A stretch of DNA of 64,000 nucleotides from Streptacidiphilus sp. ASG 303 (GTDB lineage: Bacteria; Actinomycetota; Actinomycetes; Streptomycetales; Streptomycetaceae), in NCBI RefSeq assembly GCF_020991365.1, contig NZ_JAJLRA010000010.1:124001-188000 (forward strand), written 5' to 3'. Position 1 is the stretch's first letter. Each line of letters opens with the position of its first letter. Below are positions 22,955-26,008 of this stretch, piece by piece. Both the position numbers and the translations under genes were made by a program. The notes beneath the pieces were generated by a model, which was given only the letters and a program-made list of their open reading frames with translations, was not told the origin of the DNA and did not search any database.

Positions 22955-23356
22955 TCAGGGGGACGTGAGGGTGCGGGCCAGGACCTCGCGCTGGGTGGGG
23001 AGCGCCTCGCGGTGGCGGGCGCGGCCCTCGGGGGTGAGGGAGACGTAGACGCCGCGGCGGTCGGCGCTGCACAGGGCGCGCTGGACGAGGCCGTCCCGCT
23101 CCAGGCGGCCGAGGAGCCGGGACAGGGCGCTCTGGCTGAGGTGGACGGCGCCGGACAGCTCCTGGACGCGGAGCTTCTCGCTGCCGCCGCCCGCGCTCTC
23201 GGCGAGGCGGTCCAGGACCTCGAAGTCGCTCATGCCGAGGCCGTGGCGGTCGTTCAGCTCACGGTCGAGGGCGCAGGCGGTGGCGGCGTGGCGGGCGAGC
23301 AGGCCGCGCCACTCCTCGACGAGCGTCCGCTCGGCGGCGGGGTCCAGGTCGGGCAT
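22955..23356 (-). CDS. MarR family transcriptional regulator
   Basis: A 133-residue winged-helix repressor/activator. The HTH and wing read VHLSQSALSRLLGRLERDGLVQR...DRRGVYVSLTPEGRARH, the canonical MarR DNA-binding region. It binds as a dimer and typically responds to small aromatic or oxidising compounds. ATG 23356 probably starts a leaderless message: a TAGCAT -10 box ends 7 bp upstream. A TGCATGCATGTGCACA element overlies the -35 position and belongs to the palindrome family of the adjacent WhiJ-like locus. Confidence 0.92.
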   Translation of the reverse strand: MPDLDPAAERTLVEEWRGLLARHAATACALDRELNDRHGLGMSDFEVLDRLAESAGGGSEKLRVQELSGAVHLSQSALSRLLGRLERDGLVQRALCSADRRGVYVSLTPEGRARHREALPTQREVLARTLTSP

Positions 23357-23362
23357 CGCGCC

Positions 23363-23400
23363 ATGCTAACAGCGCCGCCGGAATGCATGCATGTGCACAG
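23363..23400 (-). promoter_or_regulatory. Leaderless promoter of marR-type gene with TGCA operator
   Basis: On the minus strand, TAGCAT (23368-23363) is a fitting -10 box. Transcription would start at the A of ATG 23356. The sequence ATGCATGCATGTGCACAG (23383-23400) covers the -35 position and contains overlapping TGCA palindromes followed by GCACAGG, shared with the promoters at 24542 and 25975. Confidence 0.55.
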
Positions 23401-23572
23401 GAACAGGCGGGGCGGCCCGCGGACCGCCCCGGGGTGGCGGGCGGTCCGGCGTGCGGCGGGAGGCGCGGCCCGCAGGCCGGGACCCGCGGCGCACGGAGCA
23501 CCCCGCCGTTCCGGCGGTCCACCGCCCGGGCGCCGGACCGCCCACGCGCCGGAGGGCACGCGGCGGCCGGCC

Positions 23573-23605
23573 GCCGGCGGGGCGGCGGACCGCCGCCCCG
23601 CCGGC
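23573..23605 (-). terminator. Terminator after the WhiJ-like gene
   Basis: GCCGGCGGGGCGGCGG (23573-23588) is complementary to 23590-23605. With a realistic 5-7-nt loop the stem is about 13 bp. It sits directly after the stop codon at 23610. Confidence 0.7.
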
Positions 23606-23609
23606 CGGG

Positions 23610-24476
23610 TCAGCCTTCGGCGAGGATCGACCGCAGCAGGTCCGTGGTCTGCTCCGGCGTCAGGCTGTCGACGCAGAGCCGCTCCATCACCTGGACGTAG
23701 CAGTCGACGTCGTCGCGCTTGTCGAGGTAGAGCGCGCTGGTGAGCTGCTCCAGGTAGACGACGTCGGCCAGGTCCTGCTCGGGGAAGCGCAGGATGGTGA
23801 AGGCGCCGCTCTCCGCCGCGTGGCAGCCGAACCGGAACGGCATCACCTGGAGCACCACGTTGGGCTGCTCGGCGATGTCGATCAGGTGCTGCACCTGCCC
23901 CCGCATCACCTCCGGCCCGCCGACCGGGCGGCGGAGCGCCGCCTCGTCGACGACGGCCCACAGCCGGGGCGAGTCGCCGCCGGCCAGGAGCTTCTGGCGG
24001 CGCATCCGCAGGCCGACGCGGCGCTCGATCTCCTCCTCGCCGATGGCGGGCCTGGCGAGGCCGAAGACCGCCCGCGCGTACTCCTCGCTCTGCAGCAGGC
24101 CGGGGACGAACTGCAGCTCGTAGGTGCGGATCAGCGCCGCGGACTCCTCGAGGCCGACGTACGTCTGGAACCAGCCGGGCAGGACGTCGCTGAAGCTGTG
24201 CCACCAGCCGGACTTGTTGGCCTCCCGGACGAGTCCGAGCAGCGCCTCCCGCTCGGCCTCGTCGTCCACGCCGTACAGGCTGAGCAGGTCGGCGACGTCC
24301 CGCTCCTTGAAGCTGACACGTCCGAGCTCCATGCGACTGATCTTGGACTCGGAGGCCCGGATCGTGTAGCCCGCGTCCTCGCGGGTGATGCCCCGGCCCT
24401 CGCGGAGCCGTCGCAGCTGGGAGCCGAGGAGGATCCGGCGCACCATCGAGCCGCCCCCCGGCTGAACTGTGGTCAT
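23610..24476 (-). CDS. WhiJ/Scr1-like XRE regulator with DUF5753 domain
   Basis: A 288-residue transcription factor. The N-terminal XRE helix-turn-helix spans about residues 15-70 (LGSQLRRLREGRGITREDAG...SESKISRMELG), and the rest is the DUF5753 domain, with the family blocks ESAALIRTYELQFVPGLLQSEEYARA and VVLQVMPF. This is the streptomycete WhiJ/Scr1 architecture linked to development and antibiotic control. ATG 24476 has GGAGGTAAG upstream. It lies beside an RsbW-like ATPase (divergent) and a DUF397 gene, the classic partner set; DUF397 proteins are thought to antagonise their cognate XRE protein. Confidence 0.93.
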   Translation of the reverse strand: MTTVQPGGGSMVRRILLGSQLRRLREGRGITREDAGYTIRASESKISRMELGRVSFKERDVADLLSLYGVDDEAEREALLGLVREANKSGWWHSFSDVLPGWFQTYVGLEESAALIRTYELQFVPGLLQSEEYARAVFGLARPAIGEEEIERRVGLRMRRQKLLAGGDSPRLWAVVDEAALRRPVGGPEVMRGQVQHLIDIAEQPNVVLQVMPFRFGCHAAESGAFTILRFPEQDLADVVYLEQLTSALYLDKRDDVDCYVQVMERLCVDSLTPEQTTDLLRSILAEG

Positions 24477-24880
24477 GCGGTCTTACCTCCACCCGACGAA
24501 AACAGGGCACAGTCTGCCACTGTCCGGCTCCGAACGGTGCCCGCACAGGCATGCGGATCTCTGGGAATTCTTGCGCATGCAGAACCTGATGCACGTGCAT
24601 CCGTTGCTCGCATATGCCATTCGCACTCCTGCACGTGAATCGACCCTTGCATCTGCCGTGAGCAGAGAGGACCATGGTGCACGTGCACATGCACACCCAC
24701 TGGCAACCCCGCGGGGACCGCATCACCCCACGCGAGGCAGCGTCAGCCGTCCGAAGCGCCACCGTGCATCCGGCCGGCGGCGTCCTGCGCGCGCGGACGC
24801 CCCGGCCGACCGAGTCGGAGGTGTCCCGCATGACCCCGGCGGGTCCCGCTGTGTCAAGTCCCTTATGGGAGGAGCTGTTC
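24477..24880. other. 404-bp divergent regulatory region of the WhiJ-like locus
   Basis: AT-richer than its surroundings and dense in TGCA/GTGC elements (see next entry). An in-frame ATG at 24674 would translate one palindrome as MVHVHMHTH, which is not protein-like, so the region is regulatory. Alternative ATPase starts lie at 24830 and 24881. Confidence 0.6.
24542..24688. promoter_or_regulatory. Cluster of TGCACGTGCA-type palindromes
   Basis: In 147 bp: GCACAGGCATGC (24542-24553), the perfect 12-bp palindrome ATGCACGTGCAT (24589-24600), the half-degenerate TGCACGTGAA (24630-24639), and a second perfect palindrome GTGCACGTGCAC (24677-24688), followed by ATGCACAC. The region is shared by the divergent WhiJ-like and ATPase genes. 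These are the likely binding sites of the WhiJ-like protein. Confidence 0.65.
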
Positions 24881-25411
24881 ATGGGCGCCGCTCCGGCGGT
24901 CACGGCCGATCCGGACGTGGTCACGTGCACGCTCACGCCGCGCTACGAGTCGGTGGGGACGGCCCGCGACTTCACCCGGAGCTCGCTCCAGCGCTGGGGG
25001 CTCGGCGAACTCTTCGACGACGTCGCCCTGGTGGCGTCCGAACTGGTGACCAACGCCCTGCGGCACGCCCTGCGGCTGCGGGCCGCCGAGGCCGCCGCCC
25101 ACCTCCCGCAGCAGGCACGGCAGGGAGCCGACGGGCACCTGCCCATCCGGATCAGCCTGGTGCACCGCGCCCCGCAGGTGGTGTGCGCGGTGAGCGACCC
25201 CAGCAGCGCGGGCCCCGTGACGCGGGAGGCCGACTACATCGCGGAGTCGGGCCGGGGGCTGCACCTGGTCGACTCCTTCAGCCGGTCCTGGGGATGGCAC
25301 CCGCTGGCCGGGGCGGGGAAGGTGGTCTGGGCGCTGTTCGAGGCCCACGAGGCCCCGGCGCAGGGCGGTTTCGGCATGCAGGACCACTCCGGCCGGCACC
25401 GCCGGCCCTGA
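24881..25411 (+). CDS. RsbW-like ATP-binding protein (HATPase_c)
   Basis: A 176-residue single-domain GHKL ATPase of the serine-kinase/anti-sigma type. The N box is VASELVTNALRHAL, the G1 region AVSDPSSAGPV and the G2 box SGRGLHLVDSF. Such streptomycete proteins bind sigma or anti-anti-sigma factors or sit beside WhiJ/DUF397 pairs with unknown targets. GGGAGGAG lies 6 nt before ATG 24881; ATG 24830 with GGAGG 8 nt upstream is an equally good start and would add 17 residues. No sigma-factor gene is nearby. Confidence 0.9.
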   Translation: MGAAPAVTADPDVVTCTLTPRYESVGTARDFTRSSLQRWGLGELFDDVALVASELVTNALRHALRLRAAEAAAHLPQQARQGADGHLPIRISLVHRAPQVVCAVSDPSSAGPVTREADYIAESGRGLHLVDSFSRSWGWHPLAGAGKVVWALFEAHEAPAQGGFGMQDHSGRHRRP

Positions 25412-25593
25412 TGCGGCGGCCCCGGACGCGCCGGGCCCCGGCACGGCGCGTCCGGACCCGGACCCGGACCCGCGGCGGGCCCCGCGGCGCCCGGCCCTCG
25501 CCGTACGCGGCGGCGGCCGCCCTCCGCGGACCGGGCGCCGGAGACGGCGGCGGCCGCCGCCGGAGCACCCGGCGGCGGCCGCACGACCCGCAC

Positions 25594-25830
25594 TCAGCCC
25601 ACCAGGTGGTCGAACTCCCCGTCCTTGGCGCCCAGCAGCAGCGCCTCGATCTCCGCGCGCGTGTAGATGAGGGCGGGCCCCTCGGGGAAGCGGGAGTTGC
25701 GCACGGCGACGTCGCCGCCGGGCAGTCTCGCCAGTTCCACGCAGTTCCCCTGGGAATTGCTGTGCCGGCTCTTCTGCCAGACCACGTCACGGATCTCCGC
25801 GGCCGCCATGCCGTTGTACGTGTGGCCCAT
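25594..25830 (-). CDS. DUF397 protein (WhiJ/Scr1 partner)
   Basis: A 78-residue protein. The DUF397 core WQKSRHSNSQGNCVELARL...VAVRNSRFPEGPALIYTRAEIEALL is complete. Small DUF397 proteins pair with DUF5753 XRE regulators in streptomycetes and behave as their antagonists or co-factors. It is separated from the WhiJ-like gene only by the ATPase gene. ATG 25830 has GGAG 8 nt upstream. The leader is about 110 nt and the promoter is overlaid by a 20-bp perfect palindrome. Confidence 0.93.
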   Translation of the reverse strand: MGHTYNGMAAAEIRDVVWQKSRHSNSQGNCVELARLPGGDVAVRNSRFPEGPALIYTRAEIEALLLGAKDGEFDHLVG

Positions 25831-25948
25831 AGAAAGCTCCCGGAATGCGGTTCCTGCGCGTGACGCCGTACTCCTCGGCGTCGCGGCCGTGCGACCGGCA
25901 GGCTCCGCCCGCCTTGCGGGAGATCGGGCACCCGCCTCACTGGACGTG

Positions 25949-26008
25949 ATGATAGCCGCTGTGCACGTGCATCCGCACAGGCAATTGCCTGTGCACGTTA
26001 GTGTGCAT
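25949..26008 (-). promoter_or_regulatory. DUF397 promoter with overlapping palindromic operators
   Basis: On the minus strand a TATCAT -10 box (25954-25949) is preceded by TGCACGTGCA (25962-25971) in the spacer. At the -35 position lies the perfect 20-bp palindrome GCACAGGCAATTGCCTGTGC (25975-25994). A further TGCACGTTAGTGTGCA (25992-26007) follows. This arrangement is that of a repressor occluding RNA polymerase. Confidence 0.65.

What the first reader, a model, noticed from the sequence alone, without database searches (positions are those of the whole stretch)
23383..26007. One palindromic operator family links WhiJ-like, ATPase, DUF397 and MarR genes
TGCACGTGCA-type palindromes and a GCACAGG element recur only in the non-coding DNA of this 2.6-kb stretch: at 23383-23402 (MarR promoter), 24542-24688 (WhiJ-like/ATPase) and 25961-26007 (DUF397). 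Seen: two perfect 12-bp palindromes, one 20-bp palindrome and several degenerate copies. Known: DUF5753 XRE and DUF397 pairs occur as cognate sets. Inferred: the WhiJ-like protein binds this element, represses its partners and includes the MarR gene in its local regulon. I do not know of a published site of this form.
Basis: partly seen in the sequence, partly recalled or inferred. Interest (0 to 1): 0.75.

Follow-up and report, generated by a model that had tools for sequence, protein, structure and literature searches.

The report
Private operator of a WhiJ-type gene cluster
A short palindromic DNA signal beside a WhiJ-type regulator, a partner ATPase gene and a small DUF397 gene is kept almost unchanged across many mycelial actinobacteria and is very probably that regulator's own binding site, whereas the similar signal at the nearby MarR gene looks like a separate MarR switch.

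Summary
The core observation is real. TGCACGTGCA occurs three times in the 64-kb window, all in this cluster (0.01 expected). It lies upstream of XRE in 80 of 80 orthologous loci (the best 80 of 248 relatives) and 20 of 20 Streptomyces-type loci. Exact composites occur 69 times in 85 genomes, all at loci of this XRE family.

Rearranged loci show the targets. DUF397 genes with their own promoter carry the decamer (40 of 45, plus 20 of 20); those behind XRE do not (0 of 34). The decamer tracks the XRE recognition helix, though close paralogues share it.

MarR does not belong: its TGCA array, beside a divergent MFS gene where checked, persists in nine of nine examined genomes without a hit to this XRE. 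GCACAGG is not enriched. Binding and its sign are untested.

The parts
23610..24476 (-). XRE (HTH_31 + DUF5753) WhiJ-type regulator, 288 aa; NCBIfam NF058600 'Sco1979 family'
   Evidence: 80 orthologous loci at 70-95% identity
24830..25411 (+). HATPase_c_2 anti-sigma-like (AbaA-type) gene; start uncertain (24674 or 24830); TTA codon at residue 12 counted from 24830
   Evidence: PF13581, 1.6e-11; TTA
25597..25830 (-). DUF397 (BldB-type) small protein, 78 aa, with its own upstream region
   Evidence: PF04149, 5.2e-19
24590..24599 (.). operator decamer TGCACGTGCA, centre of the 14-bp palindrome 24588-24601
   Evidence: decamer upstream of XRE in 80 of 80 orthologous loci
24607..24613 (-). ATGCGAG, third half-site of this composite copy (consensus ATGCAAG)
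24630..24639 (.). degenerate decamer TGCACGTGAA, exactly 40 bp from the 24590 copy
   Evidence: seven g2/g5 genomes also have two decamers 40 bp apart at the ATPase gene
24646..24652 (-). ATGCAAG half-site; on the ATPase strand CTTGCAT, coinciding with a candidate -35 (TTGCAT 24647-24652)
24670..24675 (+). candidate -10 (GACCAT) of the ATPase gene, 17 nt from TTGCAT
   Evidence: comparative reading; inference, no start-site data
24678..24687 (.). operator decamer within GTGCACGTGCAC, just downstream of the candidate -10; a second, overlapping TGCACATGCA at 24684-24693
   Evidence: equivalent second decamer, 75-88 bp further from XRE, in the Kitasatospora/Streptacidiphilus-type loci except L049 and L053; not in the Actinomadura loci
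25962..25971 (.). operator decamer of the DUF397 promoter, 7 nt from the candidate -10
   Evidence: 40 of 45 separate DUF397 genes carry the exact decamer within 300 nt, 44 of 45 TGCAnnTGCA
25949..25954 (-). candidate -10 TATCAT of the DUF397 gene
   Evidence: kept in most separate-DUF397 rows; inference
23388..23397 (.). TGCATGTGCA upstream of marR: remnant of the marR/MFS array, judged NOT part of this regulon
22955..23356 (-). MarR-family gene, judged a separate system whose divergent MFS partner is missing here

Best explanation
TGCACGTGCA, usually within the composite TGCAAG-N6/7-TGCACGTGCA, is the operator of the linked WhiJ-type XRE/DUF5753 protein (NCBIfam Sco1979 family; probably the lineage of S. 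coelicolor SCO3421) and of its close paralogues. Shown by sequence comparison: the operator belongs to the promoter regions of the AbaA-like ATPase gene and of the DUF397 gene, follows those two genes through rearrangements, and tracks the XRE recognition helix. Inferred: the XRE binds it and sets expression of both partners, and the DUF397 protein modulates the XRE. Inferred with less confidence: the XRE acts both ways. From the copy just upstream of (and overlapping) the candidate ATPase -35 it probably activates or poises that gene, as WhiJ9 does iosA. At DUF397 the copy just before the -10 should occlude polymerase. In Kitasatospora and Peterkaempfera an extra copy next to the ATPase start would do the same. 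The regulon looks local. The MarR gene is not in it.
For: 80 of 80 orthologous loci (the best 80 of 248 relatives) and 20 of 20 Streptomyces-type loci have the decamer within 300 or 350 nt upstream of XRE. All 174 exact decamers in 822 kb of the 80 loci fall in windows upstream of XRE, ATPase, DUF397 or MarR that make up 10.8% of that DNA: 118 between XRE and ATPase, 45 at DUF397, 11 at MarR. Composite, allowing TGCARG and one G/T choice, in 99 of 100 loci. Genome-wide, 49 exact composites in 61 family genomes (reversed control 1): 38 within 600 nt upstream of XRE, 10 at 2.2-2.6 kb from the XRE start in two genera with another gene order, 1 seen in its own locus (one pair, G031 C57/C58, may be a duplicated contig). 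In 24 genomes of other families, 20 composites in 6 genomes, each within 481 nt upstream of a listed XRE, and 0 in the 14 genomes with no hit to this XRE (positions compared by hand). Separate DUF397: 40 of 45 plus 20 of 20 carry the decamer; DUF397 behind XRE: 0 of 34. Among 83 DUF5753 stretches: 8 of 9 at 59% identity or more have the decamer (5 are the window gene and orthologues, 3 of 4 true paralogues), 0 of 74 at 48% or less. Of 31 further rows, 30 from other families, 22 have it; of the 9 without, 8 have a helix departing from KISR[ML]E[LH]G or are distant, and L237 is the exception (helix pattern drawn up afterwards).
Against: No binding or expression data exist for this protein. The loci with the site form one related group, so motif and helix may share descent rather than contact. 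L237 has the helix but no decamer in the 1000 nt upstream. Five of 45 separate DUF397 genes lack the exact decamer. 21 of 61 family genomes, the window's own included, have no exact composite. Four genomes with a more distant XRE (53-65%) have no composite. The 0 of 34 for DUF397 behind XRE is partly expected, as the 300 nt scanned there are mostly XRE coding DNA. The only measured site of the family, that of WhiJ9, is a set of direct repeats, not a palindrome (PMC10294661). Promoter elements are read from conservation alone. In the 20 Streptomyces-type loci the DUF397 decamers lie further upstream of the TAT(C/G)AT box than in Kitasatospora, and the proposed ATPase -35/-10 pair fits Streptomycetaceae better than Actinomadura.
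Confidence: 0.77

Rival explanations
1. One reading: the XRE also binds the marR site, so MarR belongs to its local regulon.
For: The marR array contains TGCAnnTGCA within 200 nt of marR in 28 of 34 linked loci, 11 of them with the exact decamer, and marR lies 2.7-3.6 kb from the XRE start there (5.6 kb in L026). In the window the two genes are neighbours.
Against: The array (ACATGCAYRTGCATTCAATGCAAGTGCATTTAATGC type) lies between marR and a divergent gene that is MFS in the three loci tested (L016, L358, L359). In 20 Streptomyces-type genomes marR is on another contig or more than 2 Mb from XRE, yet 13 of 20 keep TGCAnnTGCA within 160 nt upstream of marR (7 do not). Nine of nine examined genomes without this XRE (E<=1e-40) keep the array, 4 with the exact decamer; the marR regions of five more such genomes were not fetched. 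No exact composite was found near marR in 61 + 24 genomes.
Confidence: 0.1
2. Another protein reads the decamer: the DUF397 protein itself, or a global regulator such as a Crp-, BldD- or AdpA-type factor (named from recall); XRE is only a neighbour.
For: SCO4542-type proteins were described as very small DNA-binding proteins (passage of PMC4255298). No direct assay of this XRE exists.
Against: BldB did not bind DNA in ReDCaT or ChIP-seq (PMC10294661). Exact composites occur only at loci of this XRE family in 85 genomes, which does not fit a global regulator. The decamer tracks the XRE recognition helix.
Confidence: 0.12
3. The repeats act as RNA hairpins, terminators or modification sites rather than operators.
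For: They are palindromic and one (24678) lies in a likely 5' leader.
Against: A 10-bp palindrome with no loop makes a poor RNA hairpin (general knowledge; not folded here). What is conserved is the position upstream of the two target genes.
Confidence: 0.03

Closest known systems
S. venezuelae WhiJ9 - iosA - BldB9 locus (PMC10294661)
   Same: WhiJ-type XRE, a divergent effector gene and a DUF397 gene; XRE binds the shared intergenic region; BldB-type proteins are linked to the system
   Different: WhiJ9 reads three direct repeats CGNNCTCAAC and activates iosA; here the site is a TGCACGTGCA composite, the effector is an AbaA-like ATPase, and DUF397 has its own copy of the site
S. coelicolor SCO3421 (WhiJ paralogue) with AbaA-like SCO3423 and SCO3424 (PMC4255298, PMC6767563 passages)
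   Same: [quoted passage not shown] SCO3424 is listed as similar to AbaA and BldB
   Different: No operator is described in the passages seen; orthology rests on conservation, the TTA codon and mid-chromosome position (inference), not on a direct comparison
NCBIfam NF058600, Sco1979 family transcriptional regulator
   Same: The window XRE scores 419 bits against a cut-off of 350
   Different: A family name only; no binding site came with it
MarR-type self-operator between marR and a divergent MFS transporter
   Same: What the 23383-23402 site is best read as
   Different: Not the XRE operator; it merely shares TGCA half-sites

Membership tests
WhiJ/AbaA/BldB module | XRE HTH plus DUF5753 regulator gene | tested here: met
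   PF13560 7.6e-16 and PF19054 5.3e-62
WhiJ/AbaA/BldB module | adjacent HATPase_c anti-sigma-like gene | tested here: met
   PF13581 1.6e-11
WhiJ/AbaA/BldB module | adjacent DUF397 gene | tested here: met
   PF04149 5.2e-19
WhiJ/AbaA/BldB module | XRE binds the cluster's intergenic DNA | not testable with these tools
   only indirect: helix tracking; co-occurrence
Sco1979 family (NF058600) | score above the curated cut-off | tested here: met
   419 against 350 bits
SCO3421 orthologue | reciprocal best match in S. coelicolor | not tested
   no named S. coelicolor genome was fetched; position and TTA codon only suggest it
WhiJ9-type operator | direct repeats CGNNCTCAAC in the XRE-effector intergenic region | tested here: not met
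   no match with up to 1 mismatch in 24477-24829 (108 matches elsewhere in the window, 64 expected)
MarR in the XRE regulon | marR site depends on presence of this XRE | tested here: not met
   array kept in nine of nine examined genomes without an XRE hit at E<=1e-40
Type II toxin-antitoxin (XRE-DUF397) | DUF397 is toxic and XRE neutralises it | not testable with these tools
   the abstract of PMC10364602 reports that none of 14 S. coelicolor pairs behaved as a type II toxin-antitoxin

The most novel reading that the evidence does not exclude
WhiJ paralogues fall into address groups: the recognition helix sets the operator, modules of one helix group share an operator and can cross-regulate, and modules of other groups are insulated from them. 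TGCAAG-N6/7-TGCACGTGCA is the address of the oldest and most widespread group, kept across families, and its obligate targets are the ATPase and DUF397 genes rather than the regulator itself. In the window's genome two of the three DUF5753 loci carry this address, so they would form one small network. Where marR lies next door with a look-alike TGCA array, the two systems may compete for sites.
Probability: 0.37. Interest if true: 0.7.

Novelty: new variant of a known kind. Interest (0 to 1): 0.5.

Why it matters
WhiJ/AbaA/BldB clusters are strongly multiplied in Streptomyces (24 whiJ paralogues in S. coelicolor by PMC4255298, passage), and that review says there was no information on WhiJ targets; the only mapped site I found in the held library is that of WhiJ9. 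A predicted operator for what is probably the most widely conserved paralogue, with its two targets and an account of how rearranged loci keep or lose it, turns 'what do these regulators bind, and which of them cross-talk' into a simple binding and reporter test. It also warns against adding MarR to the regulon.

Tried and rejected
GCACAGG as a shared element: rejected (11 found, 14.3 expected; in 300-nt upstream regions it is in 3 of 80 XRE, 4 of 34 MarR and 27 of 79 DUF397 stretches, the last not split by gene order). The 20-bp palindrome 25975-25994 as a conserved operator: rejected (1 near copy in 80 loci, plus same-genus L354). MarR in the regulon: rejected as above. A regulon beyond the cluster: of the 12 other decamers in the own genome, ten lie in a GC3-rich ORF by a rough call, L014 is a paralogous DUF397-XRE locus, L013 may lie upstream of an AraC/GlxA-like gene (judged by eye), and L005 is in unassigned DNA; exact composites gave no locus outside the XRE family. 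A solved structure of the XRE or DUF397 protein: none by sequence. A conserved operator of the second paralogue class (six loci, L098 group): the alignment shows no TGCACGTGCA and no clear dyad. Variant operators in XREs with altered helices: only L317 has a suggestive palindrome, GATGCAACCGGTTGCATC; a single case, not used. WhiJ9-type repeats in the XRE-ATPase intergenic region: none. Structure prediction was not run because monomer models would not decide DNA binding.

Since close paralogues share the decamer, the novel reading no longer claims an address per module, and its odds went from 0.40 to 0.37 and those of the best explanation from 0.78 to 0.77. The composite's spacing was also mis-written and is now TGCAAG-N6/7-TGCACGTGCA.

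Literature: the decamer is in 21 held papers, 20 listed, none of the listed titles about actinobacteria. No operator of this form was found through; the library lacks most subscription papers. Seen: PMC10294661 parts 1-4 of 7; PMC10364602 part 1 of 6 plus a word search; PMC6262351 word search only, no passage shown; PMC4255298, PMC6767563, PMC10771440 and PMC4848846 passages only; the rest, listings only. Ainsa et al. 2010 is known only through PMC4255298.
Full report
What is there. The stretch holds, on the minus strand, a MarR gene (22955-23356), an XRE/DUF5753 gene of 288 aa (23610-24476) and a DUF397 gene of 78 aa (25597-25830), and on the plus strand an HATPase_c_2 gene ending at 25411. 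XRE and ATPase are divergent; DUF397 faces the ATPase tail to tail and has its own upstream region. NCBIfam names the XRE 'Sco1979 family' (419 bits against a cut-off of 350). The ATPase has a TTA codon at residue 12, which fits the published remark that the antisigma-like gene next to SCO3421 nearly always carries TTA in Streptomycineae (PMC4255298, passage). I infer, but did not test, that this is the SCO3421/3423/3424 lineage.

The observation. TGCACGTGCA occurs at 24590, 24678 and 25962 and nowhere else in 64 kb (0.01 expected). The whole genome has 15. Ten of the other twelve fall in GC3-rich ORFs by a rough call, L005 does not, and L014 lies upstream of the DUF397-XRE pair of a paralogous locus. 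The third DUF5753 locus of the genome has none within 900 nt (L098). GCACAGG is not enriched (11 against 14.3 expected, 7 of the 11 outside the stretch), so that part of the observation falls.

Conservation. One scan of the named genome collection gave 248 relatives of the XRE, of which the best 80 were kept (70-95% identity; Kitasatospora, Streptacidiphilus, Peterkaempfera, Actinomadura, Spirillospora, Streptantibioticus and records titled Streptomyces sp.). All 80 have the exact decamer within 300 nt upstream of XRE. So do 20 of 20 loci from Streptomyces-type genomes, within 350 nt. In 822 kb of the 80 loci there are 174 exact decamers; all 174 lie in windows upstream of XRE, ATPase, DUF397 or MarR that cover 10.8% of that DNA (118 between XRE and ATPase, 45 at DUF397, 11 at MarR). 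These loci are related by descent, so the counts are not independent.

Privacy. A search for exact TGCAAG-N6-8-TGCACGTGCA in 61 family genomes gave 49 matches (reversed control: 1). Thirty-eight lie within 600 nt upstream of an XRE, ten at 2.2-2.6 kb from the XRE start in two genera with another gene order, and one (G016) beside an XRE seen in its own locus L351. One pair (G031 C57/C58) may be a duplicated contig. Twenty-one of the 61 genomes, including the window's own, have no exact composite; in the window the two copies each differ by one base. In 24 genomes of other families, picked because they have a MarR hit, there are 20 matches in six genomes, each within 481 nt upstream of an XRE listed, and none in the 14 genomes without an XRE hit at E<=1e-40. 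Four genomes with a more distant XRE (53-65% identity) also have none.

Rearrangements as natural tests. (a) DUF397 with its own upstream region: 40 of 45 carry the exact decamer and 44 of 45 TGCAnnTGCA; Streptomyces-type 20 of 20. DUF397 directly behind XRE, as in Actinomadura: 0 of 34, though there the 300 nt scanned are mostly XRE coding DNA. One locus (L020, cut by its contig end) had no DUF397 hit. (b) In seven genomes of genera g2 and g5 the XRE is turned away from the ATPase. Every one keeps two decamers exactly 40 bp apart upstream of the ATPase gene and one upstream of DUF397, and none has a decamer in the 1756-2496 nt fetched upstream of XRE. So the operator belongs to the ATPase and DUF397 promoters; XRE autoregulation is optional.

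Who binds it. Of 83 DUF5753 stretches from eight genomes, nine are at 59% identity or more to the window XRE and 74 at 48% or less. The decamer lies within 900 nt upstream in 8 of the nine and 0 of the 74. Five of the nine are the window gene and its orthologues; of the four true close paralogues three have the decamer (L096, L215, L228) and L237 does not. Fisher's P of 2e-10 ignores relatedness and includes the orthologues; for many of the 74 the script did not extract a helix. A further set of 31 rows, 30 from other families, has the decamer in 22, with up to four loci per genome. All 22 read KISR[ML]E[LH]G in the helix. The nine without are three KMSR types, two KICR types, L319 (MEGG), two distant ones, and L237 again. 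The helix pattern was drawn up after seeing the data. This is good circumstantial evidence that this group of XREs reads the decamer, but helix and site may also share descent. It also means that close paralogues share the operator: in the window's genome the L096 locus could cross-talk with this one.

MarR. In relatives marR lies next to a divergent gene, which is MFS in the three loci tested (L016, L358, L359), with an array of the type ACATGCAYRTGCATTCAATGCAAGTGCATTTAATGC between them. Of 34 linked loci, 28 have TGCAnnTGCA and 11 the exact decamer within 200 nt of marR. In 20 Streptomyces-type genomes marR is on another contig or more than 2 Mb from XRE, and 13 of 20 keep TGCAnnTGCA within 160 nt upstream of marR. 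Nine genomes without this XRE whose marR region was fetched (L200, L203, L205, L208-L213) all keep the array, four with the exact decamer (L200, L209, L210, L213); five more such genomes were not fetched. The simplest reading is MarR's own operator. In the window the MFS gene is gone, and so is the TetR gene seen in same-genus L354; only a remnant of the array remains. A shared use of the site by XRE and MarR is not excluded.

How it may work. At DUF397 the decamer ends 7 nt before a conserved TATCAT in Kitasatospora-type loci, a position expected to block polymerase. At the ATPase the composite's CTTGCAT doubles as a candidate -35, followed after about 17 nt by GACCAT-like boxes in Streptomycetaceae, which puts the palindrome about 48 nt upstream of the presumed start, a position open to activation. 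In Kitasatospora and Peterkaempfera an extra decamer lies just past the candidate -10. WhiJ9 activates iosA, and loss of BldB raises all five abaA paralogues (PMC10294661), so activation of the ATPase restrained by DUF397-type proteins is plausible. The sign is not shown here. WhiJ9's own repeat, CGNNCTCAAC, is absent from the XRE-ATPase intergenic region even with one mismatch.

Verdict. A real, deeply conserved operator, confined to loci of one XRE group, of a known kind of module, with a sequence I did not find in print within the held library. The MarR and GCACAGG parts of the finding do not hold.

Noticed in passing
window 23357-23609: Relatives have a divergent MFS gene, and same-genus L354 also a TetR gene, between marR and XRE; neither is seen in the window, leaving marR with a remnant of its array.
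   Followed up: partly
window 24863-24865: TTA codon at residue 12 of the ATPase gene; a TTA codon is present in 35 of 35 Kitasatospora/Peterkaempfera-type, 19 of 20 Streptomyces-type, 5 of 6 other, 10 of 34 Actinomadura-type and 0 of 5 Streptacidiphilus loci (the frame was extended upstream to the first stop, so some may lie before the true start).
   Followed up: partly
L013 1485-1525: TTGCATGCACGTGCAA palindrome just upstream of what looks, by eye, like a GlxA/AraC-type regulator gene in the own genome.
   Followed up: no
G000 compared with G011: The window's genome has only 3 DUF5753 genes, its same-genus relative G011 has 14.
   Followed up: no
L317, 159 nt upstream of XRE: A paralogue with KICR in the helix has GATGCAACCGGTTGCATC, the same GATGCA half-site with a longer spacer.
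   Followed up: no
L100, L103, L104: Three further DUF397 genes in the own genome without a DUF5753 gene detected nearby; one may be the canonical bldB.
   Followed up: no
literature: SCO3424: SCO3424, similar to AbaA and BldB, is listed in the sigma-E (cell envelope stress) regulon of S. coelicolor (PMC6767563, one passage).
   Followed up: no
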